Part shown: positions 5,310 to 51,397 of the stretch, piece by piece
Numbering within the stretch: the stretch's first letter is position 1
How the letters are laid out: each line of letters starts with the position of its first letter
Assembly (NCBI RefSeq): GCF_026410385.1
Contig: NZ_JAPMLT010000001.1
Span: forward strand, 558,001-622,000
Reading direction: 5' to 3'
Length of the DNA stretch: 64,000 nt
Source of the DNA: Tumebacillus lacus
GTDB lineage: Bacteria; Bacillota; Bacilli; Tumebacillales; Tumebacillaceae
Position numbers and translations under genes: made by a program
The notes under the pieces: model-generated
Seen by the model: only the letters and a program-made list of their open reading frames with translations
What the model was told of the DNA's origin: nothing
Databases searched by the model: none

Positions 5310-8300
5310 TTACCATCTGCTGATCATGCCCTTGAGCGATCTCTCGGCGCGGGTGATCGCATTGTCCACTGCGCGTCCAAGCGACGTGCGGTCAAATGCC
5401 CCCTCGAAGTTAGTCAACTTGTTGCCGGCCCCGAGGATCTTGCCGATCTGGGAAGTGACGCCGAACAGATAGCCGCCGATCGCCCCTTTAATGAAACCGA
5501 TGACCGATTTTCGCAATACATGGCGCTCCAACAACGTGAAGCCTGCTCTTGCCGCCTTGTAAGCGAGACCACCGCCAATACCGCCGCCCATAAAGGTGAA
5601 GAAGACGTTGGTCAGCGTATTGGATCTCCAGTCATTCGCCAGCGAGCTGACGATGCGGTTGAACAACTTTTTCGTGGCTTCTTTCCAAGAAAGGTGCCCG
5701 TTCGGGTCGATGTTCATGACCGGGTTGTTATGCGCATACGCGTATTGGTTCAAGCTCAGCGGCACATCTTCCACGCCGTGGAACGTGTCTCGGGTGATGA
5801 AGCGGCCCGTGTTCGGATCGTAGTAGCGTGCGAGCAGGTAGTACATTTTCGTCGCTTCCTCGTAGCGATAGCCTGCATAGCGGTACGGGTTGGCCGATGC
5901 CATCGCACCGGACTGCGACAGGATGTTGCCCCATGCATCATAGCGGTATTCGGCCACGACGTTGCCGGCAGCGTCGGTCAATCCGGTCACGTCGCCGTGC
6001 CCGTTGACATGATAGTAGTACGTCTGCCCCCCCTTGGTCATCGTGACCGGGTTGCCTTCCTCATCCCACGTATACTCGGCGTTGATCTGACCGTTCGCAT
6101 CAGTCTCGAACATCACCTTGGTGCCGTTGTAATGGAATTTAGTCGTGCCTGCAGAAGTGGTCGCGCCGATGCGCTTGCCTTGGTAGTCATACTCATAAGA
6201 AGCGATCACCGTGCCTTGCGCGTTCTTCACTTGGGTCAAACGATTCCCTGCATCGTACACAAAGGTGTTCGCCCCGTTATGGGTCAGATTGCCGTTGGCA
6301 TCATATTGATATGCTTGGCCGTTGACGGCGGTCAGTTGATTGCCGGCGTCATAGGTGTACGCGGTGGCGGTGACCGCAGTTCCTTTGGTCACTTCTTTCT
6401 TGGTGCGGTTACCGACCGCATCGTACACATAGCGGATGGCGGTGCCGTCCGGATGTGTCTCTTTCAGCAGTTGATGCAACGAATCATACTCGTACGCATA
6501 GTTGCCCGTTTCGGTCGCGATACCGATGATGTTGTCATTTGCATCATAGGAGTAGGCGTGCGAGTTGAGCACCGCACCGTTGACCGTGTAGTTTTTCAGC
6601 GCTTTCAAGCGATTCGCTTCATCATACAGATACGAGGTGTACGATCCGTTGGAGTAGATCACAGACGTCACGTTGCCGCGTTCGTCATAGATAAACTTCG
6701 CTTGCTTGACTCCGTTTCGCGCCAAGGCGGTCAGTTGGTTCAGCGGGTTAAACTCCGCGCCCGCCGTGACGCTGACCGTGCCGGACGTCATCTTGACCGA
6801 GGTCTGGTTGTTGTTGTCGTCAAAACCGAAGTCCAGTTGGTTCGCGCCGGTCACCTGTTGGATCAGGCGGTCGTTTTTGTCATACACGAACGAAGTGGTG
6901 CTGCCCGCCGCATCGGTCACGCTCGCCAAGGAGCCGCTCGGGTGGTACGTCGCGCTCCACTTTTTCACCCCGTTGTGATAAATACCGTCCACGAGGTTGC
7001 GGGCGTTGTACGATTGACCTACCGTGTTGCCCGACGGATAGGTCACTTTCGTCTCATTGCCGTTGCGATCATACTCCATCGAGATCGACTGGTTGAGCGA
7101 GTTTGTGATCTTCGAGAGCAGGTTCCATTCGTTGTACACATAACTGGTCGTGTTGTTTTTGGCATCTACCATCGACGTGCGGTTGCCCGTTCCGTCGTAT
7201 CCGTAGGACGTGATGCCGCTGTTTGCGTCGGTGACCTTGGTCAACAGGTTGCGGCCTTCATATTGATAGAAGGTTTGCGCCCCTTTGCCGTCCGTCGCTG
7301 AGATCTTGTTGCCGACCGCGTCATACGACGACTTGAAAGTCGTTCCGGCCGGGCTTTTCTCTGCGGTGATGTAGTTGCCCGCTGCATCGTAGGAATAGGA
7401 CGAGTGCGACGCCCCCTGCTCAAAACGAACGGCATCGAACAGCGCGGCACCGGTCTGATTGTAATAATAGTAGTAGACGTCTACCGATTGGAACGCTTTT
7501 TGCGCGGTGACTTCCGCAGCGACATGCTGCCAGTTGGTATCCGTCTTGTCGAACGCATTGGCGTTTGTCCAGTCTGTAGTGCCGTCAGCGTGGTTGATCG
7601 CCACTTGCATGTTGTAGTAGCCGCCGTTCGGATCAGCCCCGGTCTGCTTCGACCACCCGGACAGAGTAAAGCGTTCTCCCGCTACTCCGGAGAGATTGAT
7701 GCGTTGCTTGATAAATTTGTTCTTGCCCGCTTCTCCGGTCAATTTGAACGAATTGGCGCCTGCATAGGCGTTGTCATCGCCGCTGACAGATTGCACGAGA
7801 CTGTCATTGGCAGACAGGTTGCCCGAGTGAGTCCAGAAGTCCGGCATTTTATCTACGTTGGCATCGAGTTCAAAGCTGCTGTTTTCCAGCAGGTTGTACG
7901 CGCTGAGCACAGTGCCTTTTTCCAATTGAATGCCGTCAAAGTGCGCCGTGCCTGGACCTGCATTCATGCCGACCGCCACGCGCACCTTGGCCGTATTGGC
8001 CGGAGCGTTGTCGACCACCGCTTGCAGACGGGTCCAGTCATGCGTGCCCTTCATCACAAAGGACTGTTGCTGGCCGAGCCAGTTTTGGTTGGTGTCGAAG
8101 AACTCCAGTTTGACCAGAGCCCCGTTGGTCACGCCATCCAGTTTCATAAAACCGCTCACCACGTATGGCGTACCCGCGGTGTACGGGATCATGCTGTCAG
8201 AAGCCGCGAGTGCCCAGCCTGTCGGGTTCGAGATCGAAACCGACTTGGTGCCGTATTTGCCTCCCGCCTCTGTGGTGATCGTCGCCGTCTTGCCCGGCTC

Positions 8301-10964
8301 GATCTGTTTCGACCAGTTGTCCGGCCAGTTGTCCCCGTTGCCGTCCTGCTCAAAGCTGGAGTTGGTGACGAGGTTATCCGCGACAGACATCGCATGCGTC
8401 GTATAGTCGATGTTGCCGTTGGCGAGGTAACGGTTGGACGTGGTCTGCGCATACGCGTCGCTCGCTTCCGTCTGATTGCTGCGTGCATCGTAGGCGAACG
8501 AGCTGACGTTGTTGTTAAAGTCCTCGACGCTCGTCAAATCGTTTTGGCCGTTATATCCGTAGTCCGCTCGCTGGCTACCCGGCAGTTGCACCGCCGTCAC
8601 GTTGCCTTTCGCGTCGTAGGAATACACGTACGCTTCCGTGCCGCCGTTTTTGTTTGCGTTCGGGTCTTTCACCTGTGTCAGGTTGTTGTTGTTGTCGTAC
8701 GCGTAGGTCGTGACCGCTTTATTCGCCTCATCCAGCGGGTTTTCGATGGTCTGGACGACGTTGCCGTTGGCGTTGTACGTGTAATCGATGCGCTTGCCTT
8801 CAGCGTCTGTGACAGACGTGATCAGGTTTGTCATGTCATAGGCGTACGTGGTCGTGCCGGTCTGTTTCACAGTGCCGATGGTGATCGGGCGAGCGACCGT
8901 CGTGACGCGGTCGTTTGCGTCATAGGTGTACGTCGTTGCGTAGCCGCGCGCGTCGGTCAGCGCGGTCATGTTGCGGTTGGCATCATATGCGTAAGAAGTG
9001 GCGGCGTTTGCAGCGTCTACCTTCTTGCTCAGGTTGCCCGTCGCATCGTACTCATAACGGGTGATGCGATTCGCCGGGTCGGTCAGCGTCGAGACATAGC
9101 CTGCTGCGTTGTAAGCCAGCGTCGTGGTGCGGCCCGAGGCATCCTTGACCGAGGTCAGCTTGCCCGATGCGTCGTATTGGAAAGTGGTCGCGTTGCCGTT
9201 CGTGTCGGCGAGAGAAGCCAGCTTGCCGGACGTTGCAAAATTGATGGCCGTGCCGTCCGGTTTGGTGATCACGTACGTGCCGTCGGCGTTCTTCACCAGA
9301 TCGAGGTACACGCCGCCATTCGCTTTATAGACGCCGTCAGCTCGCTGACCGAAAATGTGGCGGGTGCCGTCTCCGTCGATCAGGGTGATCGGACCGCTGC
9401 CGGAGTCGACCAGTTGCATGTCCCAGTTGGTTTGCCAGCCGTAGCCGAACAGCCCGGCCACTGCCATCCGGCGGCTGTTGTGCGTGCGTTTCAGTTCGAC
9501 CGGAACACCGCGACCTTGAATCGACAGGTCGGTCTCCTGAAGCACGAGGTTGCCGTTCGAAACGTTTACGCCGTCCTTACTGTAGCCCCAGAACTCTTCC
9601 AAGCCAATCGCGTCCACCGTGTACGTGATCGTCAGGCGCGGCGTGTTGTTGCCCGCGTTGACCGAAGTGAACGTGCGGTACGGCGAGGTCGTCTCATTCT
9701 GCTGTTTGAGCAGAAATCCGTAGTTCGGCGTCACGCCGTTGTACCAGTCCTTCACCAGTTGGGTCGCATACATCGTCCAGTAGGCGTTTGCCGTGTAATT
9801 CGTTGTGGTGGTCTCCGCCGTCGTTTTGATCTCCGGCTGCGTGTTCCACGTGGTGTTGGAGCCCCATGCGGAGGTGATGCGGTGCAGGTCGATCGACGTG
9901 TTGGTCGCGTCCGTTTTCTGCTGGTAGAGGTTCAGCGTCGCGCTGGAGATTTTCGCGTCGCTCGGCATGCTGGAGAGATAGAATTGCGCCAGAGAGCGAG
10001 TCGCTCCAAAGTACCCGTGGTAGCCGGTCGTCAGGAACGTCTCCGAACCGTAGCTCGCATCCGGGAAGGCCGAGGAGATGAACGTGTCGCGCAGAACATC
10101 CCAATTGTTGATCGTCGGATCGATGGTGACCGGGAACTTCGTCGTCTTGTCTTGCAAGAACGCCGCATCCGGTGTCACATCAACGTATGTTTTACCGTTT
10201 GCTTCGCGGAGGTTCATGTCGACTTTTTGCGAGTACTTGCCTTCCGCGTCGGTCATGAACGGTTTTTCAAAGTACCACACCTTCTCGCCGTTCTGATCGG
10301 CCAGAGCGATGGTCCCGTCCTTTTCAACCGTCGCCTTGACCCCTTTTTGCTTCAGTTCGAAGGAGAACGTCGCTTGCTTTGGCAGCGCGTGGAGGATCAA
10401 GTCCTCTTTCACGCCCTCGCCTTGTGCTTGGTAGCGGACATCCGCATTTTCAAATGCGCCCGCATATGTGATCTCATCGCCTTTGACAGCACCCTTCGCT
10501 TGCTTGGCACCGACCGGGATCAGCCCGACGCTCTTGCCGCCTTTCTCCACGGAAACCAGTTCGTTCGCTCCGCTCTGATCGGCGAACCAGATGTTAAACG
10601 CATTGGAGCCGTTGACAAACCCCGTTTTTTGATTGCTTGCTTTCAGCTTGTTGTCGATCTTTTTCCATTCTTTGCCCGATGCGTCGAGATAGTGCTGCGC
10701 CTCCAGGGAGATCTCTTCTGTGAACGAGCCGTCCGGGTTTAGATAGGTGGTCGAGTATTTGGTTCGCTTGCTGGTCAGCTCCAGTCGTTCTTTCGGGAGC
10801 TTGTTCGGCATCTCGCCGATCACCGCGTTCATAGCCGATTGATCACCCTGACTCTTGATCGCGCCGGCCGCTTCTGCGTTCGGCGTGCAGGCCGCATTTG
10901 CCACCAGACAGGTCGAAAGGAATAACGACAAAAACTGAGATGAGGACTTCCACTTCGATGACAA
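5310..10964 (-). CDS. Giant secreted RHS/YD-repeat protein with DNRLRE and carbohydrate-binding-like domains
   Basis: 1884 residues from a TTG start with GGGAG ten bases upstream. A signal peptide (about 1-33) is followed by an N-terminal wall-associated region, a DNRLRE-type beta domain (about 285-450), a first block of YD repeats (about 560-870), and two tandem beta-sandwich modules beginning 'NSSFEQDG' and 'NSSFELDA' that resemble CBM-type domains. A second YD block leads to the RHS core boundary ('RYYDPNTGRFITRD' and 'YAYAHNNPVMNIDPNGH'). The last 127 residues form a unique tail with two glycine-rich hydrophobic stretches. The plan is that of Gram-positive polymorphic-toxin or WapA-like proteins. 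No LPXTG anchor is present. Tail activity cannot be assigned. Confidence 0.9.
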   Translation of the reverse strand: MSSKWKSSSQFLSLFLSTCLVANAACTPNAEAAGAIKSQGDQSAMNAVIGEMPNKLPKERLELTSKRTKYSTTYLNPDGSFTEEISLEAQHYLDASGKEWKKIDNKLKASNQKTGFVNGSNAFNIWFADQSGANELVSVEKGGKSVGLIPVGAKQAKGAVKGDEITYAGAFENADVRYQAQGEGVKEDLILHALPKQATFSFELKQKGVKATVEKDGTIALADQNGEKVWYFEKPFMTDAEGKYSQKVDMNLREANGKTYVDVTPDAAFLQDKTTKFPVTIDPTINNWDVLRDTFISSAFPDASYGSETFLTTGYHGYFGATRSLAQFYLSSMPSDAKISSATLNLYQQKTDATNTSIDLHRITSAWGSNTTWNTQPEIKTTAETTTTNYTANAYWTMYATQLVKDWYNGVTPNYGFLLKQQNETTSPYRTFTSVNAGNNTPRLTITYTVDAIGLEEFWGYSKDGVNVSNGNLVLQETDLSIQGRGVPVELKRTHNSRRMAVAGLFGYGWQTNWDMQLVDSGSGPITLIDGDGTRHIFGQRADGVYKANGGVYLDLVKNADGTYVITKPDGTAINFATSGKLASLADTNGNATTFQYDASGKLTSVKDASGRTTTLAYNAAGYVSTLTDPANRITRYEYDATGNLSKKVDAANAATSYAYDANRNMTALTDARGYATTYTYDANDRVTTVARPITIGTVKQTGTTTYAYDMTNLITSVTDAEGKRIDYTYNANGNVVQTIENPLDEANKAVTTYAYDNNNNLTQVKDPNANKNGGTEAYVYSYDAKGNVTAVQLPGSQRADYGYNGQNDLTSVEDFNNNVSSFAYDARSNQTEASDAYAQTTSNRYLANGNIDYTTHAMSVADNLVTNSSFEQDGNGDNWPDNWSKQIEPGKTATITTEAGGKYGTKSVSISNPTGWALAASDSMIPYTAGTPYVVSGFMKLDGVTNGALVKLEFFDTNQNWLGQQQSFVMKGTHDWTRLQAVVDNAPANTAKVRVAVGMNAGPGTAHFDGIQLEKGTVLSAYNLLENSSFELDANVDKMPDFWTHSGNLSANDSLVQSVSGDDNAYAGANSFKLTGEAGKNKFIKQRINLSGVAGERFTLSGWSKQTGADPNGGYYNMQVAINHADGTTDWTNANAFDKTDTNWQHVAAEVTAQKAFQSVDVYYYYYNQTGAALFDAVRFEQGASHSSYSYDAAGNYITAEKSPAGTTFKSSYDAVGNKISATDGKGAQTFYQYEGRNLLTKVTDANSGITSYGYDGTGNRTSMVDAKNNTTSYVYNEWNLLSKITNSLNQSISMEYDRNGNETKVTYPSGNTVGQSYNARNLVDGIYHNGVKKWSATYHPSGSLASVTDAAGSTTSFVYDKNDRLIQQVTGANQLDFGFDDNNNQTSVKMTSGTVSVTAGAEFNPLNQLTALARNGVKQAKFIYDERGNVTSVIYSNGSYTSYLYDEANRLKALKNYTVNGAVLNSHAYSYDANDNIIGIATETGNYAYEYDSLHQLLKETHPDGTAIRYVYDAVGNRTKKEVTKGTAVTATAYTYDAGNQLTAVNGQAYQYDANGNLTHNGANTFVYDAGNRLTQVKNAQGTVIASYEYDYQGKRIGATTSAGTTKFHYNGTKVMFETDANGQINAEYTWDEEGNPVTMTKGGQTYYYHVNGHGDVTGLTDAAGNVVAEYRYDAWGNILSQSGAMASANPYRYAGYRYEEATKMYYLLARYYDPNTGRFITRDTFHGVEDVPLSLNQYAYAHNNPVMNIDPNGHLSWKEATKKLFNRIVSSLANDWRSNTLTNVFFTFMGGGIGGGLAYKAARAGFTLLERHVLRKSVIGFIKGAIGGYLFGVTSQIGKILGAGNKLTNFEGAFDRTSLGRAVDNAITRAERSLKGMISRW

Positions 10965-43275: not shown

Positions 43276-44573
43276 TCATTGGAAAGGTTCTGACGCGTTT
43301 CTCTTCACTCGAACCGTGTACTCCCGAATTGTTTCCAATATTTCGATCACTCTGGGATGATCACCTGCTTGCAGATAGAGCCGGGAGAGTTCATACAACG
43401 TTTCCTCCCACTCCTCCACCCGATCCGCCTGTTTGAATCCAACTGCGGCCATCTGGAACCGGCGCTTCGCTTCCTCCGGGTTGTATGTTGCCACCGCGAC
43501 TCGTGCCAGGACACGGTTGATGACAGCCTGACCGACATGCAGGGGCGGGAAGAACGCCTGCGCCTGCCCGCAAGACTCGACTGCCCGACCCAGATCCCCT
43601 TTCCGCAAATAGATCTGTGCCAGCTCCGCACAGGCCATGCCTTGTAACTCGCGATCCTTCAGAAACTCCGCCTTGGACAACGCGTACCTCAACATCTGCT
43701 CCGCATCCTCTTCCCGATCCGTAACCGCGTATAGAGCAGCCGTCTCGATTTCCAGTTGGATGGTCATCCGCAACTCCTGAATGCTCTGAAAGACAGCATG
43801 CGCCCGCTCCGAGTGCACAGCGGCTTGCTCCACTTTCCCGAGTTGCTTGCAAGATCTTGCGAGCTCCAAACAGGCATGTGCCATCTCCGGAAGAGTGTCT
43901 CTGCCCTCGTACATCTCAACAGCACGGGATAGATACTCCTCCGCCGTAGATGGCTGCCCTTGCATGATCGCGACTTGACCAAGCCTGTGCAGGATACTTG
44001 CCTGAAGACCTGCATCTCTCGCCTCCATCTTCTCGCTCTCCGCCAAAGCCTTCTCCCACTGGAAGCACGCGATCTGATACAGCTTGCGTTGAAACGCGAT
44101 GTGCCCCAGATCTAGCAACACCTTCGCCTTGAGATACGCATCGTCACTGAGCACCGCGTATTCCTGCAGCTGTTTGAAGATCGCCTCCGCCTCCGCAAAC
44201 TGACTCGTATGCAGCAAGCACTCCCCGAGATGAAACAAGATCTCCATCGTCGAAATCGACGCACGCGCCTCTCCACCAATCCCCGCAACAACGGGATCGC
44301 CGACCCGTACTCCTGTGCCGCCACCATCGCCGTCGCCATTTTGTAGGTGCTGATGGAGTCCAGATTCAGCTCCACGTTCGAGAGCAAGTTTTCCACCGGC
44401 ACCTCCAACCGTTCCGCAAAGGCGGATAACAAGTTAAAAGACGGTCTCGCCTTCCCACTCTCCACCTGAGACAACATCGACGGCGTAGCGATCCCCTCTG
44501 CCAACTGGATCTGTGTCCACCCTTTTTTCAATCGCAACTCCCGAATCCGCTGTCCTAACGTCAAGTCACCCAC
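43276..44573 (-). pseudogene. Frameshifted XRE-TPR (RRNPP-like) regulator
   Basis: The N-terminal part (from 44573) has a clear XRE helix-turn-helix ('LTLGQRIRELRLKKGWTQIQLAEG', 'SMLSQVESGKARPS') and runs into a wrong frame. The remaining TPR part, ending at 43276, continues in another frame from about 44270. At 44266-44276 adding a single G (GTGGAGAGGCG to GTGGAGGAGGCG) would rejoin the two halves into a protein of about 432 residues. Either a real one-base deletion or a sequencing error. No secreted peptide gene is visible after it. Confidence 0.85.
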
Positions 44574-44686
44574 ACACTCACCCCTCTGAATCTCGTTGAG
44601 ATGAGTTTAGAATTTACTTATTAGTTCCAGCAATATGTTATAGCGAGTAGGAATTTTGCATAACGACTATAAACATTTCACAACTG

Positions 44687-44715
44687 TTGTTTAGATGGAT
44701 ATACTTATGTATAAT
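44687..44715 (+). promoter_or_regulatory. Sigma-A-like promoter of the second XRE-TPR regulator
   Basis: TTGTTT (44687-44692), 17 bases, TATAAT (44710-44715). Transcription would start near 44722, 29 bases before the ATG. Confidence 0.65.
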
Positions 44716-44750
44716 TATCTTTGCTTATTGTGATTGCAGAGGTGGTACAT

Positions 44751-45444
44751 ATGAATATCCATAACGAGCATAAAGAAACCATCGGCGAAAGAATCCGCCG
44801 ACTCCGAAAAGAACGCAACCTCCCCCAATCCTTCCTGGCCGATGCCACCGGCGTCACGTTCGGCTGGATCAGCCAAATCGAACAGGACAAAGCAAACGCA
44901 TCGCCGGAGTTGCTGAACAAGATTGCAGTTGCTCTTAAAGTTCCGATACGAGAGCTTTTGCAAGATGAAGATCAACACATGGAACTCGTCAGCCGTATCC
45001 GTTTAGTCGAAGTCTTGCTGGAAACGAATCAAACTGACGAAGCAGAATCGATGATTCAGGATCTGCAACACGAAAAAGATCTTTCGGAAAAGGACCGGAT
45101 CATGCTCTCCGTCCATCTGGCCGAATGTCGGTATCAACAAAAACGCTATGAAGATGCTCTTCACGTCCTCCACCCCATCATTACGGATCTAGAGGCGGAA
45201 AATCATCATGACGCGTACCTGTTAGCGTTAATCCGCAACAAAATCGGCAATGCCTACACACAGAGACAGGACACAGGAAATGCTTACTACAATTACAAGA
45301 AGGCTCTCGATTACACCTCACGTTTCTCGTCATTCAACGACCTCGCTGCCCATATCTCCTACAACGTCGGCCTCACCCTGAGACGACGTGGCAGATCGCA
45401 TGACTCGATCCACTTCTTGGAACGCGCCGGAGAATACTTTCAAC
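44751..45444 (+). pseudogene. 5' fragment of an RRNPP-like peptide-responsive regulator, split by an IS21 element
   Basis: It begins at the ATG at 44751 (GAGGTGG upstream). An XRE HTH occupies about residues 7-70 ('IGERIRRLRKERNLPQ', 'GWISQIEQDKANASPE'), followed by TPR helices ('NKIGNAYTQRQDTGNAYYNYKKAL'). The reading frame is intact to the IS insertion after 'ERAGEYFQ'. With the IS and one copy of the CAAC duplication removed, the frame joins exactly to the fragment at 47630. The size (438 codons) and design match NprR/Rap-type receptors. Confidence 0.88.
45441..45444 (+). repeat. Left copy of the IS target duplication (CAAC)
   Basis: Matches CAAC at 47626-47629. A 4-base duplication is within the range for the IS21 family. 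Confidence 0.8.
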
Positions 45445-45517
45445 TGTCAACATCAGTTGAAAATTCCTCAAAAACGCCGTTTGAAAATTCCCCAGTTTCA
45501 CCGCCCAAATGAAAAGG

Positions 45518-46297
45518 CTACCTGTCCTGATCCTCGGTGTTTTCTGCCCTGAAGAATCCTGCTTTTTTCTTTTCCTTCACTCGATAGCTTTCGCCTTTGA
45601 TGTTGATCGTACTGGAATGATGGAGGAGGCGATCCAGAATGGCAGTCGCTAACACGGTATCGCCAAAGATGTCTCCCCACATGCCGAATGATTTATTGGA
45701 TGTGAGGATGATCGATCCTTTTTCATATCGTTCCGAGACAATTTGAAAGAAGAAATGGGCAGCAGTTTCGTCCATCTTACGGTAGCCAATCTCATCAATA
45801 ATGAGGAGATCCGGCTTAGTATAGACGCGCATCTTCTGTTGAATGGAGCGGCTGTGATGGGCGTCCTGAAGAGTCTGCACAAGATCGTGAGCCGATGTAA
45901 AGTAGACGGTCTTTCGTTGTGCGATGGCCTCCATCGCCATAGCTACCGCCAAGTGCGTTTTCCCCACACCTGGCGGCCCTAGCAGGATCACATTCTCCTG
46001 ATGTTCAACAAAGCGTAAGGTGGCTAGGTCACGCATTCTGCGCTCGTCGATAGACGGCTGAAATTCGAAGTCAAACTGTTCCATCGTTTTGTGGTACGGC
46101 AACTTGGCAAGGCGTGTCCTCGTCTTGAGATAGCGGTCGTGTTTCGCCGCTAATTCCTCCTGAAGGAGCTTGTCTAGAAACTCCAAATACGTTAGATTGT
46201 GTTTAGCTGCTTCTTCCGCATGAGCATGGAGAATCTCCGGAATCCGGACCCATCCAAACTGTTGAAAGGCGGCTTCTAAGCGCTCTTGTATGATCAT
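45518..46297 (-). CDS. istB: IS21-family helper ATPase IstB
   Basis: 259 residues, intact. The AAA+ Walker A is 'LLGPPGVGKTHLAVAM' and the Walker B region is 'DLLIIDEIGY'. IstB assists the IstA transposase in target selection. Its start overlaps the stop of istA by four bases, the normal IS21 arrangement. Confidence 0.95.
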   Translation of the reverse strand: MIIQERLEAAFQQFGWVRIPEILHAHAEEAAKHNLTYLEFLDKLLQEELAAKHDRYLKTRTRLAKLPYHKTMEQFDFEFQPSIDERRMRDLATLRFVEHQENVILLGPPGVGKTHLAVAMAMEAIAQRKTVYFTSAHDLVQTLQDAHHSRSIQQKMRVYTKPDLLIIDEIGYRKMDETAAHFFFQIVSERYEKGSIILTSNKSFGMWGDIFGDTVLATAILDRLLHHSSTINIKGESYRVKEKKKAGFFRAENTEDQDR

Positions 46298-47539
46298 GAG
46301 CGCACCACCTCCTCGTCTGTGAACTGTTCATAGACGGCGAGAGGACGTATGACCACTTCTGGTATAGCGTTAGACATGAGTCGCGGTATAGGTTGGGGAA
46401 CCGGTTTGGCGACGCTGTCTGTTCGAATGCCTTCGAAGTGGTTTTTATTTTGTATAACGATTCTTTGACCGGTAGCTTTTCTGTGTTCCGCGATCATCTT
46501 ACCTTCATAGTAGATCCGAATCCCGCCGCGACGATCATCTTTGATCTGCACAAGATGCCCAATAAACCGACTCGGAACAGAATATCGATTCCCCTCATAG
46601 GAGATGAGAGTGTCTGACGACACTTTGCGAACATGGTATTCCACACAATCAAACGGCTCTGATGCCATCTGTTTTAAACATTCACGGGAGAGACGGTCAA
46701 CAGGGCGCTCTTGCGTCGTGCCGTGAATGCGAACATTCGCAATACTGTTTAGCCAGTGAAGGGCCAGTTCATTCAGGTGCTGGAGATCGGTAAAGGATTG
46801 TACCCGCGGCCAGAAGTTTTTGCGGACATAACCCACTCCGTTTTCTACCTTGCCCTTCGTTCGAGCCCGATAGGGGCGGCAGCGGCGAAGAAGGGAAGCC
46901 ATGATGGGCTGCAAATTGCGCGAAACGCGCATTCCAAACAACATCGCCTTGATCATCCACACCAGCTACTACGGTTTTCATGTTGTCGTAGAGACAAGTT
47001 TCAGTGATACCACCAAAGAATTGCATAGCCCGTTCGTGACAACCCATCAGGGTTTCTAAACGCTGGTCTTCTGTGAATTCCACAAACATGGAACGGGAGA
47101 ATCCCAAAACCATGACAAACGCGTAGAGACGCTTTTTCTTTCCGTTCCACTCAACTCGGAACTCGCCCCAATCCACCTGAGCCTGCCGACCTGGCGGTGT
47201 TTCAAATCTGACCGTTGCTTTTGAGGAAACCTGCGGCCGAAGTGGTCGCATATAGTCTCGAAGGATCGTAATCCCGCCGGTGTACCCAGTTGCTCGGATC
47301 TCGTCTAAGATGACAACCGCATTGAGGCAACCTTCTTCCATCCGTTGTCTGACGTAAGTCTTGAAGGGAGCCAACTTTTCTGGTTTCTCTACAGTACGGC
47401 GGTAGTCGCCCGGAACTCCCTCCCGAATCCATCTTCTGATCGTCTTACGGTCGCGGCCGAGCTCTTTCGCGATGGACGTGATGCTCATCCCCCGTTGCTT
47501 CATCTCTTGAATCACAAAATATTCCCCATTCTTGACCAT
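46294..47539 (-). pseudogene. istA: IS21-family transposase IstA, frameshifted
   Basis: The N-terminal part has a helix-turn-helix ('MSITSIAKELGRDRKTIRRWI') and the first part of the DDE domain ('QAQVDWGEF', 'ETCLYDNMKT'). It leaves frame after 'FAAHHGF' near 46890-46900. The rest ('CRPYRARTKGKVENGVGYVR' onward) is one base out of frame and runs to 46294. The element is therefore probably unable to transpose by itself. Confidence 0.88.
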
Positions 47540-47625
47540 GATTTCTCTCCTCTCGGAGAGATTGTCCGTTGGAAGTGGGGAATTTTCAACCGTTTATATT
47601 GGGGATTTTACAACCGTTGCTCACA

Positions 47626-47629
47626 CAAC
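47626..47629 (+). repeat. Right copy of the IS target duplication (CAAC)
   Basis: See the left copy at 45441-45444. Confidence 0.8.
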
Positions 47630-48252
47630 AAACCAAGAATCTAAAAAGCTATGCCCATTCCCTTTACGTGCAGGGAATCGCATATAAAAACACACACGAC
47701 TTCGAAAAAGCAGCCGAACTTTTCCATCAATCGAAACAGCTCTACCAGACGCTCAACCACCACTCCTTACTCTACGAAGTGCAACTGACCATCGCATCGT
47801 CCATCACCCATCACCACGACCTTCAGCAAGCGTTACGAGAGTTGGAAGAGTGCTTCTAGCATTTTGTAAAGGAAGACGACCCAGCCGGTATCGTGTTTGT
47901 GTTAGCGAAGAAAGCGAGTCTCCTTTTAGATCATGGTCACTTCGAGGAATGTGAATCAACTCTCGAACAAGCAACGGTCTATGAATCTTCAGTAGGTGAG
48001 ATTCTAGAAGCCGGAGAATACCACTCCGTTCTCGCTCGATACCAACACACCAAAAAACAATTTCCACAATCCATCAATCACAGTTTAAAATCTTACGAAA
48101 TCTTTGGTAGAATAGGCATGTACCAAGATCAAGTCAACGCCCTGAAACTCGTGGTTGATTCTTACCGCAGTCTCGGAGATTTCGAAAAAGCTTTGCACTA
48201 CCAATCGGTACGGAGCGACGTACTAGAACTGATGAACAAGGAGCGAATATAA
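47626..48252 (+). pseudogene. 3' fragment of the split regulator, with an in-frame amber codon
   Basis: It continues the TPR domain ('QTKNLKSYAHSLYVQG', 'AYKNTHDFEKAAELFHQSKQLYQ') from the point broken by the IS. A TAG at 47857-47859 interrupts the same frame after 'ELEECF', and coding resumes directly ('HFVKEDDPAGIVF') to the natural stop at 48250-48252. So the receptor carries a second lesion besides the IS. The AAGGAG in its last codons is the ribosome site of the following peptide gene. Confidence 0.86.
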
Positions 48253-48253
48253 C

Positions 48254-48376
48254 ATGAAAAAAGTACTGATCACGATGTTCGTTGTGTTACTCGGAATGGG
48301 GATTGTTCAGGCGGATCTTCAATACTCCGCTGCTGACCGCGATCCAGGGCCATTGGTGATTGCACAAACAAAATAA
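48254..48376 (+). CDS. Small secreted propeptide, likely Phr/NprX-like signalling peptide
   Basis: 40 residues starting two bases after the receptor stop, with AAGGAG ten bases upstream. It begins MKKVLITMFVVLLGMGIVQA, a good export signal, followed by a hydrophilic section and the C-terminus PGPLVIAQTK. In RRNPP systems (Rap-Phr, NprR-NprX) such a gene sits directly after the receptor, and the C-terminal 5-10 residues become the imported signal. The peptide frame is intact although the receptor is broken. Identity is inferred from size, signal and position. Confidence 0.72.
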   Translation: MKKVLITMFVVLLGMGIVQADLQYSAADRDPGPLVIAQTK

Positions 48377-48390
48377 TTTAGACTTTACTT

Positions 48391-48415
48391 AGCACCCTTA
48401 GGGTGCTTTTTATTT
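48391..48415 (+). terminator. Terminator of the regulator-peptide operon
   Basis: AGCACCC/GGGTGCT stem followed by TTTTTATTT, 14 bases after the propeptide stop. Confidence 0.88.
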
Positions 48416-48476: not shown

Positions 48477-50087
48477 CTAATCGGTAAAGCTACCAAAATG
48501 ACGAGAAAAATCATCTAGACTCTCTGATAATTTCTCGAAAATCAGCTTCGGAAACCTATTAGGCAACGAGGTACTGACAATAAAGTTTGTAAATGACATC
48601 CCTGGAAACAACTTCTTTTTGTTTTCAAGGATTCGAAATATAGGCTTACCATTTTTTCGCCCAATAAGGTTACTCATCAGCTCGAACTCCTCAATGCTGA
48701 GATGAAAATGACCTTTAAAATCCATATCTAATAATGAGCTGAGCCTCTCTGTTATTTTATCCTCAATAAACTGGATCGTAGGAAATTCCCCCGTCGTTAC
48801 GCTCATAACGAAGATATCTCGAATTCCCTTGAGTTTTGAGTGCTGCACGCCATGAATCAATTCACTCAGCCTATCATGTATTTGCTTAATTGGCTCAATT
48901 ACCATTCGATCAATATCTTTCTCAATGTATGATTCTTCACCTTCAAGAATGGTTTCAAGCAATAATCTTCTACTCTTAGTTTCTATGACAAGCAACTTAT
49001 CTCCCAATCTAAGCATGAGGTCCGGTGACCTCTTTACACCTCCTGCTCCATATTCATACTCAAACTCTTGAATCACTTCATAAGGAAGGGATGAGTCATG
49101 AATCGCTCTTTCCAGTAAGATTTGTACATACCGCTCAAATACGCGTCCCATAAAGCCTAAAAACTTTGAGTCATTTCGTGGGTAACAGTTTCTAATCCTA
49201 AAAAACAACTGTGAAAAAAATTGCTCTTCAAGCAATTTAGACATAATTGGATAACTTCGTCCATTAGGCAATTTTATTATCGGATATTCAAGAAACTTCG
49301 TGTAGTTCCAATGCGAATCGATTGTATCAATAGCCCATAGTTTTGCATCCTCTAAACTAATACTAAGCGAATCAAGAACTTTTGCTCCTACTTTGGTGAA
49401 CTCCGCGTTATTAAATAACTTAATTAAGTCCACTTCCCTGTTTGAAAAAATGGCATCCTCATCTTCTTGATATTTGGCCGTTATCAAACTAATCGTGCCT
49501 AAATAGTCTTGAATCGAGTATCCATATGTTTCATAGAATTTAGATGAAAAATTAATAGACTCCCGCGGAAAATTCATTCCGACCTCTATCGGTAGCTCTG
49601 TAAATATCATTTTTGCTCGAGCAAGTGCAGCAAATCCTGCCGTATGCTGATTGAAAACATAGTTTTGCAACATATGCTTTTTTACGCTTTCAACTGAAAT
49701 GTCCTCTAAAGATATCGCATCTGATATTTCAATACAAAAAATGAGTAGGATCAATACAGCATGTCCTAGTGGCATATTATCTTCTTCAATAGCGTTGGTG
49801 TCGCCATAAGCCAACAACCATTTCCAAGTCGCAAGAAGTCCTTGATGACTATAAAGATATTTGTTCTTAGCCCTCTGACCAGCAATAGGAAAATTCCTTT
49901 CGAATAAATCGCGAACCGCTGCGTCTTTATCCAACGGCAGAGCAGACATTCTAGAAAGCACATTAAGTAAAGTCCCGAGAGGAACCGTCGAGAGACGATC
50001 AATTAATTCATCAGTATCAGTTTTATCAACAAATAAGTCCCGTTTGGTAGTAAATACTTTAATGAATTTTTTCATACCGGAATTCAT
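48477..50087 (-). CDS. Protein with a PD-(D/E)XK nuclease-like motif, AT-rich island gene
   Basis: 536 residues from an ATG with AGGAAG upstream. In the second half a PD-(D/E)XK-like core is visible: E318 in 'GRVFERYV', D356 in 'RSPDLML' and 'LLVIETKS' (E369, K371). The first half is helical with no recognised motif. Base composition is far more AT-rich than in the core genes, which fits recent acquisition. It could be a defence or mobile-element nuclease; no partner nuclease or helicase is adjacent. Family not identified. Confidence 0.75.
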   Translation of the reverse strand: MNSGMKKFIKVFTTKRDLFVDKTDTDELIDRLSTVPLGTLLNVLSRMSALPLDKDAAVRDLFERNFPIAGQRAKNKYLYSHQGLLATWKWLLAYGDTNAIEEDNMPLGHAVLILLIFCIEISDAISLEDISVESVKKHMLQNYVFNQHTAGFAALARAKMIFTELPIEVGMNFPRESINFSSKFYETYGYSIQDYLGTISLITAKYQEDEDAIFSNREVDLIKLFNNAEFTKVGAKVLDSLSISLEDAKLWAIDTIDSHWNYTKFLEYPIIKLPNGRSYPIMSKLLEEQFFSQLFFRIRNCYPRNDSKFLGFMGRVFERYVQILLERAIHDSSLPYEVIQEFEYEYGAGGVKRSPDLMLRLGDKLLVIETKSRRLLLETILEGEESYIEKDIDRMVIEPIKQIHDRLSELIHGVQHSKLKGIRDIFVMSVTTGEFPTIQFIEDKITERLSSLLDMDFKGHFHLSIEEFELMSNLIGRKNGKPIFRILENKKKLFPGMSFTNFIVSTSLPNRFPKLIFEKLSESLDDFSRHFGSFTD

Positions 50088-50638: not shown

Positions 50639-51397
50639 CTAAAATAATTTCGAAGAGGAAAACTGTCTAAAGTGATCAAATTGTTGCTTCTTCCCTAAAT
50701 ATTTGGCCAGTCCATCCATATCAGGAAAAATAGAAAACTCATTAACCCCACATTGAATCAAAAAATTGGCGATATCTACTTTTAGATCAGGCGTTAGCAC
50801 AATTTCACTTAAAACATCTCTATTTTCGATTTCCTCATCCAATGATTTATTGGAATTCCCCTGAAGAGTGAAGTGCCCATGCTGAGCCACCATTCTAGGG
50901 TTATTTCTAACAGTACTAATAGCTAATGTTTGATCCGAAAAAGAACGATCATTAATTAATGTTTCATAACTTGGATAATAATGTGGGATAGACAATATCC
51001 CTTCATGATCAGACAAGTTATTCAGTTTATAAGGATTGAGCACCCAAATTCTTGCATTCCCGTCATGGTCCCAACGTTGAGTTGCAAAGAATAGTGCTAC
51101 CGCAAACGAAGACGTCCAGTCTAAAAGCCGAGTACTCGCACCGTGATGCTGCATTAAAAACAATAGTTCCCAATCCGTTTTCCTATGAATTGTATTACCT
51201 AGATTATAAAAATCGCTATAGAGATTAAACTCATAATTAAGGAAACTTTCCAAACTCCCCTGAAAATCCAATCTAAAAAGGCCAGAATTTAATTTTGGCC
51301 ATTCTCTACTTTCTCCTCTATACCAAACATCACGCTTGCTATATGTAAATCCATTAACTTTATCCAAAATTCTAATCCACTTTTTCGAATACTTCAT
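50639..51397 (-). CDS. FRG-domain protein
   Basis: 252 residues. 'WYRGES' (25-30) and 'LLFLMQHHGASTRLLDWTSSFAVALFFA' (split here over about residues 78-105) are the hallmarks of the FRG domain, named for a conserved F-R-G arrangement; 'QHHGxxTRLLDWT' is its core. FRG proteins occur often in phage-defence and mobile regions, but their activity is not established. AT-rich like its neighbour, and located directly downstream of the 3' end of tRNA-Pro. Confidence 0.85.
   Translation of the reverse strand: MKYSKKWIRILDKVNGFTYSKRDVWYRGESREWPKLNSGLFRLDFQGSLESFLNYEFNLYSDFYNLGNTIHRKTDWELLFLMQHHGASTRLLDWTSSFAVALFFATQRWDHDGNARIWVLNPYKLNNLSDHEGILSIPHYYPSYETLINDRSFSDQTLAISTVRNNPRMVAQHGHFTLQGNSNKSLDEEIENRDVLSEIVLTPDLKVDIANFLIQCGVNEFSIFPDMDGLAKYLGKKQQFDHFRQFSSSKLF

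What the first reader, a model, noticed from the sequence alone, without database searches (positions are those of the whole stretch)
44751..48376. Peptide quorum-sensing cassette broken by an IS21 element but with an intact signal gene
Removing 45445-47625 and one CAAC copy restores the frame exactly (GEYF-QQTKN). The receptor has an XRE HTH plus TPRs, and a 40-residue secreted propeptide begins two bases after its stop, the classical RRNPP layout. A further TAG at 47857 lies in the same frame. The cell may keep making a signal without the receptor (a signal-blind producer). I know of no description of this receptor-peptide pair.
Basis: partly seen in the sequence, partly recalled or inferred. 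Interest (0 to 1): 0.75.

Follow-up and report, generated by a model that had tools for sequence, protein, structure and literature searches.

The report
Peptide-signal cassette with broken receptor
In a bacterium of the genus Tumebacillus, the receptor gene of a peptide cell-to-cell signalling pair has been cut in two by a jumping gene while the gene for the signal is still readable, and relatives show both whole versions of the pair and several independent cases of the same kind of receptor loss.

Summary
Relatives make it a real RRNPP-type pair: receptors in the same and a neighbouring genus are followed by a propeptide (32 of 33 surveyed stretches by script, the 33rd by eye; controls 6 of 126), and the peptide core (DxDPxP) follows the receptor tree. 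New: many copies have a divergent second HTH-TPR regulator (frameshifted in the window); in three genomes a palindrome was found only between the two; and receptor breakage recurs (7 of 17 in the window's clade, by IS21, IS66, frameshift, nonsense, truncation), propeptide intact each time. This genome shows no intact receptor of that clade, so 'signal without cognate receptor' is supported at gene level. But a short gene escapes that many lesions by chance about half the time, and expression is untested. Most likely an inactivated module of a known kind in a new layout; a selected 'send-only' state is possible but unproven.

The parts
43276..44573 (-). Divergent partner regulator A (HTH + TPR), frameshifted at about 44265-44271
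   Evidence: Intact own-genome paralogue L012 matches in two frames, 44561-44271 (69%) and 44265-43306 (54%), E 4e-128; a partner A found on the opposite strand in 18 of 39 stretches
44574..44750 (.). A-B intergenic region with a promoter-like site for the receptor at 44677-44705; the palindrome seen in relatives is degenerate here
44751..45444 (+). Receptor B, N-terminal piece: XRE HTH and, by the model of the orthologue, the first four TPR hairpins (231 codons); the frame runs 22 codons into the insert (stop ends at 45512)
45441..45444 (.). Target duplication CAAC, left copy
45445..47625 (-). IS21-family element, 2181 bp, no second copy found in this genome
45518..46297 (-). istB, open frame
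   Evidence: NF038214 1.6e-87
46294..47539 (-). istA split in two overlapping frames (46769-47539 and 46294-46962)
   Evidence: NF033546 profile 2-228 and 217-285
47626..47629 (.). Target duplication CAAC, right copy
47626..48252 (+). Receptor B, C-terminal piece (TPRs) with an in-frame TAG at 47857-47859
48254..48376 (+). Propeptide gene P, 40 codons: MKKVLITMFVVLLGMGIVQADLQYSAADRDPGPLVIAQTK; Shine-Dalgarno-like AAGGAG upstream
   Evidence: homologues
48391..48407 (+). Terminator-like hairpin directly after P; similar hairpins with a T run are seen after P in L057-L060

Best explanation
This is an inactivated copy, probably inactivated not long ago, of a peptide-signalling module of the RRNPP type found in Tumebacillus and a neighbouring genus. 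The intact module has a receptor B (HTH plus nine TPRs) followed at once by a secreted propeptide P and, in the window's clade and some others, a second HTH-TPR regulator A facing away from it. Working model of the intact module: P leaves by the Sec route, is trimmed to a short peptide holding the D-x-D-P-x-P core, comes back through an oligopeptide permease, binds the TPR groove of B and changes B's binding at a palindrome between A and B, so that A and B-P are switched. In the window A is frameshifted and B is cut by IS21 and a nonsense codon; P is readable but no intact receptor of its clade was found in this genome. Most likely P is a remnant not yet decayed, with little or no output. Shown here: anatomy, homology, conservation, lesions, linkage of the palindrome to the module in three genomes. 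Inferred: secretion, processing, import, binding, regulation, the age of the breaks in the window, and whether P is expressed.
For: Orthologues at 50-58% identity to the N piece, each followed by P. P after 32 of 33 surveyed receptor stretches by one criterion, the 33rd by frame reading, against 6 of 126 control genes. The P core follows the receptor tree: the window groups with L122 (support 88/66) and with L121/L123/L133/L143, all DxDPxP. B is under strong purifying selection (dN/dS 0.065-0.097 in 5 comparisons) and P shows dN below dS in 5 of 5 pairs (0.076-0.411). AlphaFold2 model of the intact orthologue L059: pLDDT 90.4, HTH then nine helix pairs; aligns with NprR (Z 25.0, 343 residues, rmsd 5.4), RapI (Z 27.4, 352, 5.0) and, with the HTH, PlcR (Z 21.3, 278, 10.0). 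A on the opposite strand in 18 of 39 stretches. A 21-base palindrome, up to 3 mismatches, occurs at 7 places in 3 of 7 genomes, all 7 about 103-108 bases before the match of a B gene of the window's clade; reversed control 0. 12 SBP_bac_5 proteins in this genome. The next best match to the N piece in this genome is 29% identical and falls in another clade.
Against: No expression, secretion or binding data. The TPR fold is not specific: LGN and other TPR proteins score as high or higher. A tblastn with the intact receptor finds nothing in plasmids or phages; among the PDB sequences listed (30; the best 60 of 104) are HTH and general TPR proteins, with RapF only weakly (3.5e-4). The palindrome was not found within 3 mismatches in the four genomes of the window's genus, the window's own included, so a shared operator there rests on a partial core. 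A was not seen in the fetched stretch in 21 of 39 cases. Against a very recent break: three separate lesions in A and B and a frameshifted istA in the insert. The assembly is 95.7% complete, so an intact receptor elsewhere is not fully excluded.
Confidence: 0.75

Rival explanations
1. Selected send-only state: P is still expressed and secreted, and the cell gains by influencing neighbours that keep the receptor while ignoring the signal itself (a signal-blind producer).
For: Receptor breakage recurs in the window's clade: 7 of 17 copies (window, L061, L062+L082, L122, L133, L143, L144) by independent lesions, with P intact in 7 of 7; 0 of 14 in the sister clade; Fisher p 0.019 with the window left out. 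Receptors of L143 and L061 keep low dN/dS although broken, so those losses look recent. In G000 and G011 no receptor placed in the clade is intact. L082 and L124 carry a second propeptide gene whose code resembles that of other receptors.
Against: P is about 9% of the B+P target, so 8 lesions all missing P has probability about 0.47. The clade comparison was drawn after the fact and its members are related. No promoter evidence for P once the insert separates it from the B promoter. Partner A is broken too in the window and in L058, where B is intact, so the loss is not confined to receptors.
Confidence: 0.2
2. The N-terminal piece still works: the 253-residue product (HTH, first TPRs, 22 residues read from the insert) binds the operator whatever the peptide level, so that the insertion made a peptide-blind regulator rather than a null.
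For: The N frame is open to 45512 and a promoter-like site stands before it. In 4 of the 7 broken copies the HTH is left open (window, L062, L133, L144).
Against: In the other 3 the lesion lies in the HTH or removes it (L061, L122, L143). The A-B palindrome is degenerate in the window.
Confidence: 0.15
3. The 40-residue ORF is not a pheromone precursor but another small membrane or secreted peptide.
For: No family match for it; processing and import untested.
Against: Position, size, signal-like start, agreement of its C-terminal core with the receptor tree, and two to four repeats of the core in several relatives are those of RRNPP propeptides.
Confidence: 0.05
4. The breaks are sequencing or assembly errors.
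For: Draft assembly of 26 contigs; the A lesion and the TAG are single-base matters.
Against: The IS21 insertion has clean ends, a target duplication and defined genes; similar breaks occur in the one-contig genomes G011 and G012.
Confidence: 0.04

Closest known systems
AloR-AloP of Paenibacillus polymyxa (PMC7425212, passages read)
   Same: [quoted passage not shown] some copies with a missing or degenerate partner (there the peptide gene).
   Different: No divergent HTH-TPR partner in the passages read; mature AloP13 is SHGRGG, unlike the DxDPxP cores here; the breakage seen here is in the regulators, not in the peptide gene.
NprR-NprX, Rap-Phr, PlcR-PapR (RRNPP)
   Same: Fold: HTH plus nine TPRs; Z 25.0 to NprR, 21.3 to PlcR, 22-27 to Rap proteins. 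Order receptor then propeptide (recalled for these families).
   Different: In the PDB sequence searches no match beyond HTH and general TPR proteins except RapF weakly; peptide codes differ (recalled); divergent partner A.
AimR-AimP and 'subfamily 08' of Paenibacillaceae (PMC12700828, section 7 read)
   Same: That paper reports a widespread DPG motif in their mature peptides; the window's peptide reads DRDPGPL.
   Different: No tblastn match of the receptor in 50,697 phage or 72,556 plasmid records; whether the motif is shared by descent was not tested.
Truncated PlcR of Bacillus anthracis (PMC2901330, start of abstract in the listing)
   Same: A peptide-activated RRNPP receptor lost by a nonsense mutation in a whole species.
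   Different: There the loss marks one lineage; here it recurs in several copies and genomes by different lesions. The state of the partner signal gene there was not checked.

Membership tests
RRNPP quorum-sensing system (criteria from PMC10075063, section 15 and introduction passages) | Receptor of 250-500 aa with TPRs, HTH optional | tested here: met
   Intact orthologues L057-L060 are 439-444 aa, HTH plus TPR. The window copy itself is broken: its frame from 44751 gives 253 aa.
RRNPP quorum-sensing system (criteria from PMC10075063, section 15 and introduction passages) | Propeptide of 10-100 aa within -60 to +400 bp of the receptor | tested here: met
   40 aa, one base after the stop
RRNPP quorum-sensing system (criteria from PMC10075063, section 15 and introduction passages) | Sec signal sequence in the propeptide | tested here: inconclusive
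   Lysines then a hydrophobic core (10-residue Kyte-Doolittle mean 3.25) and a V-Q-A cleavage-like site; SignalP was not available
RRNPP quorum-sensing system (criteria from PMC10075063, section 15 and introduction passages) | Mature peptide re-imported by an oligopeptide permease | tested here: inconclusive
   12 SBP_bac_5 proteins in the genome; transport of this peptide not testable here
RRNPP quorum-sensing system (criteria from PMC10075063, section 15 and introduction passages) | Peptide binds the TPR domain and changes receptor activity | not testable with these tools
   Only indirect: peptide core follows the receptor tree
AloR, AimR, or cluster/subfamily 08 of Paenibacillaceae | Receptor sequence clusters with that subfamily | tested here: inconclusive
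   No tblastn match in phage and plasmid records, but reference receptors of these subfamilies were not compared one by one and supplements could not be read
IS21 family | istA/istB, TG...CA ends, short target duplication | tested here: met
   (istA frameshifted)

The most novel reading that the evidence does not exclude
Send-only communication as a recurrent evolutionary state: in this clade of modules the receptor is lost again and again by independent events while the pheromone gene stays readable and conserved, because cells that signal without listening gain by steering neighbours. The module itself would be a peptide-gated cI/Cro-like switch of two divergent HTH-TPR regulators on one operator that lies only at the modules.
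Probability: 0.15. Interest if true: 0.8.

Novelty: new variant of a known kind. Interest (0 to 1): 0.5.

Why it matters
Three searches of the paper library found no paper that holds Tumebacillus together with RRNPP, 'quorum sensing peptide' or tetratricopeptide. The modules come in several copies with different peptide codes, many carry a second regulator, in three genomes an operator-like palindrome (up to 3 mismatches) was found only at the modules, and their receptors break often. That gives natural receptor-minus, signal-plus genomes next to intact ones, so the question whether signal-blind producers persist because they gain by manipulating neighbours, or are only relics, becomes testable with wild material.

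Tried and rejected
Chance ORF: rejected by the control. Module on a plasmid or phage: no match. Relatives further away: the genome-contig scan gave 21 loci; six (T. flagellatus, T. permanentifrigoris) match much or all of the N piece, the other 15 the HTH region only. In the order search 7 of 14 genomes matched at 1e-40, all in the window's family. Insertion preference of this IS21 for receptors: in G003 only the C29/C4 pair was seen inside a receptor of the clade; the other copies or ends lie elsewhere, although HTH-TPR or TPR genes stand within a few kb of three of them; too few to test. Selection on P from its being intact: not proven. AimR does not appear among the rows shown; that excludes nothing. 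A common operator in the window's own genus: only a partial core was seen, none at 3 mismatches.
Full report
What is there. The window reads a receptor gene from 44751 whose frame runs into an inserted element at 45445 and resumes at 47626, ending at 48252. The insert, 45445-47625, starts TG and ends CA, is flanked by CAAC on both sides, has imperfect terminal repeats, an open istB and an istA split by a frameshift; no second copy was found in the 4.18-Mb assembly. A TAG lies in the C piece at 47857-47859. One base after the receptor stop a 40-codon ORF begins (48254-48376), followed by a terminator-like hairpin at 48391-48407. The divergent neighbour at 44573-43276 is another HTH-TPR regulator; its intact paralogue L012 matches it in two frames with the break at about 44265-44271. 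So both regulators are broken and only the short gene is whole.

Where it comes from. The collection holds four genomes of the genus, the window's own included. A scan of named genomes gave close matches only in Tumebacillus flagellatus (L057) and T. permanentifrigoris (L058-L062); contig lengths and places suggest that these are G002 and G003. Matches at 1e-40 occur in 7 of 14 genomes of the order, all in the same family: four of the window's genus and three (G011-G013) of another.

Is it a receptor-propeptide pair? Intact orthologues share 50-58% identity with the N piece, and the two window pieces align end to end with them. All seven copies nearest the window (window, L057-L061, L082) have a propeptide-like ORF by one fixed criterion (start -20 to +40 from the stop, 30-90 codons, hydrophobic stretch, K or R near the start). 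The same criterion is met by 32 of 33 further receptor stretches; the remaining one, L133, where a frameshift moves the stop, has its propeptide further on. Of those 33, 28 stretches hold all 29 matches of G011-G013 at E up to 1e-60 (two matches are parts of one broken gene); 5 were picked by hand from weaker rows (L149-L153). The other weak rows were not surveyed that way. Among 126 control genes 6 met the criterion, 3 of the 6 being C pieces of broken receptors. Not every HTH-TPR gene has a propeptide: of the 19 other own-genome loci read, L002, L004, L005, L013 and L019 do and most of the rest do not, and L044, L046 and L053 of the other three genomes of the genus do not.

Peptide code. In a tree of 50 receptors the window groups with L122 (support 88/66) and with L121, L123, L133 and L143. 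Their propeptides read, near the end: window AADRDPGPLVIAQTK, L122 SSDLDPGPLGVIAKPKY, the other four AADLDPKPH or VADLDPKPH; L059 has AADLDPGPHITSQTIK, while L057 and L061 share IAYDDLIGPKG and other branches have other codes. Several relatives carry two to four repeats of their core. Codon comparison gives dN/dS of 0.065-0.097 for the receptor (5 comparisons) and 0.076-0.411 for the propeptide (5 pairs); the window's own pair was not in that comparison.

Structure. The AlphaFold2 model of L059 (pLDDT 90.4, pTM 0.73) shows an HTH followed by nine helix pairs. It aligns with NprR (5dbk, Z 25.0, rmsd 5.4, 343 residues), RapI (4i1a, Z 27.4, rmsd 5.0, 352) and PlcR (2qfc, Z 21.3, rmsd 10.0, 278), but eukaryotic TPR proteins such as LGN score as high (Z 28.6), so the fold fits RRNPP without proving it.

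The module. In T. permanentifrigoris all five copies have a divergent HTH-TPR gene A beside B, with different neighbours. A was found on the opposite strand in 18 of 39 stretches: window, L058-L062, L121-L128, L130, L131, L133, L144; in the other 21 it was not seen in the fetched stretch. A is itself broken in the window and in L058, and only its first part matched in L133. Alignment of the A-B gap shows a TATAAT-like box before B and, in copies of G011-G013, a palindrome TTACATCAA-TTC-TTGATGTAA. With up to 3 mismatches it occurs at 7 places in 3 of 7 genomes, every one about 103-108 bases before the match of a B gene of the window's clade (L121-L126, L133), with none for the reversed control. 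In the four genomes of the window's genus it is not found at that stringency; there only a CAATTCTTG-like core is seen in several copies, and the window's own version is degenerate. A local switch acting on A and B-P is the simplest reading; that A and B bind it is inference.

Receptor loss recurs. In the window's clade (16 tree rows plus the L062+L082 pair, which was placed by identity and layout and not in the tree) 7 of 17 receptors are broken: window (IS21 and TAG), L061 (frameshift in the HTH), L062+L082 (another IS21 in the opposite orientation, duplication TCAG; the two halves lie at two contig ends and are paired by that duplication), L122 (TAA in the HTH), L133 (frameshift), L143 (5' part missing), L144 (IS66-like element of 2498 bp, duplication ATACATTC; the family name is recalled from its gene set). 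L126, flagged with one TAG, was counted as intact because that TAG is its last codon. In the 14-row sister clade none is broken; without the window the contrast is 6 of 16 against 0 of 14, Fisher p 0.019, drawn after the fact and among relatives. L153, in the more distant group, is frameshifted as well, with an intact propeptide, and L150 lacks its 5' part. P is intact in all seven. But P is only about 9% of B plus P, so 8 lesions would all miss it with probability about 0.47: intact P is no proof of selection. Low dN/dS in L143 and L061, whose receptors are broken, suggests that those losses are recent; for the window the only hint is a branch (0.46) no longer than those of intact L058-L060 (0.56-0.66).

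Signal-blind producer? No intact receptor placed in the clade is left in the window's genome or in G011 (matches too weak for the tree were not placed), so the gene-level half of the claim stands, within a 95.7% complete assembly. The producing half is open: promoter-like sites in the region are not clearly above chance and the B promoter lies 3.5 kb upstream beyond an antisense element. The import side is plausible: 12 oligopeptide-binding proteins.

What is known. RRNPP_detector (PMC10075063; abstract, sections 7, 8, 15 and passages read) lists 34 high-confidence clusters and names Alicyclobacillaceae among hosts, the NCBI family of Tumebacillus, so related pairs may be in its supplementary data, which could not be read. 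AloR-AloP (PMC7425212, passages) is the nearest described many-copy case that I found. The structure-based tree paper (PMC12700828, section 7 and passages) reports a DPG motif in AimR and subfamily 08 peptides. PMC9765709 and PMC11343458 were searched for passages only. No paper in the library holds Tumebacillus together with RRNPP, 'quorum sensing peptide' or tetratricopeptide.

Verdict. Observation confirmed; interpretation partly supported. A new variant of a known kind (RRNPP-type pair, often with a divergent second regulator and with frequent receptor loss), with the window as one broken copy.

Noticed in passing
L082 936-1118 and about 1236-1367; L124 (two ORFs after the receptor): A second propeptide gene follows the first; its code resembles that of another module (VAYDGGLPPS as in L060; DLDPGPLGV as in L122), suggesting extra or mimic signals.
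   Followed up: partly
L144 (G012:C1:2548200-2555500): IS66-like element of 2498 bp with an 8-bp duplication ATACATTC inside a related receptor; propeptide intact.
   Followed up: yes
L058-L060, downstream of gene A: A small gene of about 100 codons (..VFKIKGVLVSEKVV..IFDG..EIHFVAPT..) overlaps the end of A; function unknown.
   Followed up: no
window 48477-50087 and 50639-51397 (minus): A 536-aa protein with a weak NERD match (0.0038, below the cut-off) and an FRG-domain protein matching PADLOC candidate PDC-S15 (1.3e-41) lie beside the cassette: possible defence genes.
   Followed up: partly
L151, L152: Propeptides with four repeats of FIHDAEPL after HTH-TPR receptors.
   Followed up: no
L057 versus L061 and L058-L062: L061's receptor from the HTH end onward and its propeptide match T. 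flagellatus (72% DNA) while its A gene and N-terminal receptor part match its T. permanentifrigoris paralogues (77-83%), as if signal-specific and regulatory halves are reshuffled.
   Followed up: no
L093, L094, L097 (G003): Three other copies or ends of the same IS21 lie within a few kb of HTH-TPR or TPR genes, though not inside a receptor of the clade.
   Followed up: no
window 5310-10964 (minus): A 1884-residue protein rich in YD-type repeats (RHS-like by eye; no family search run).
   Followed up: no
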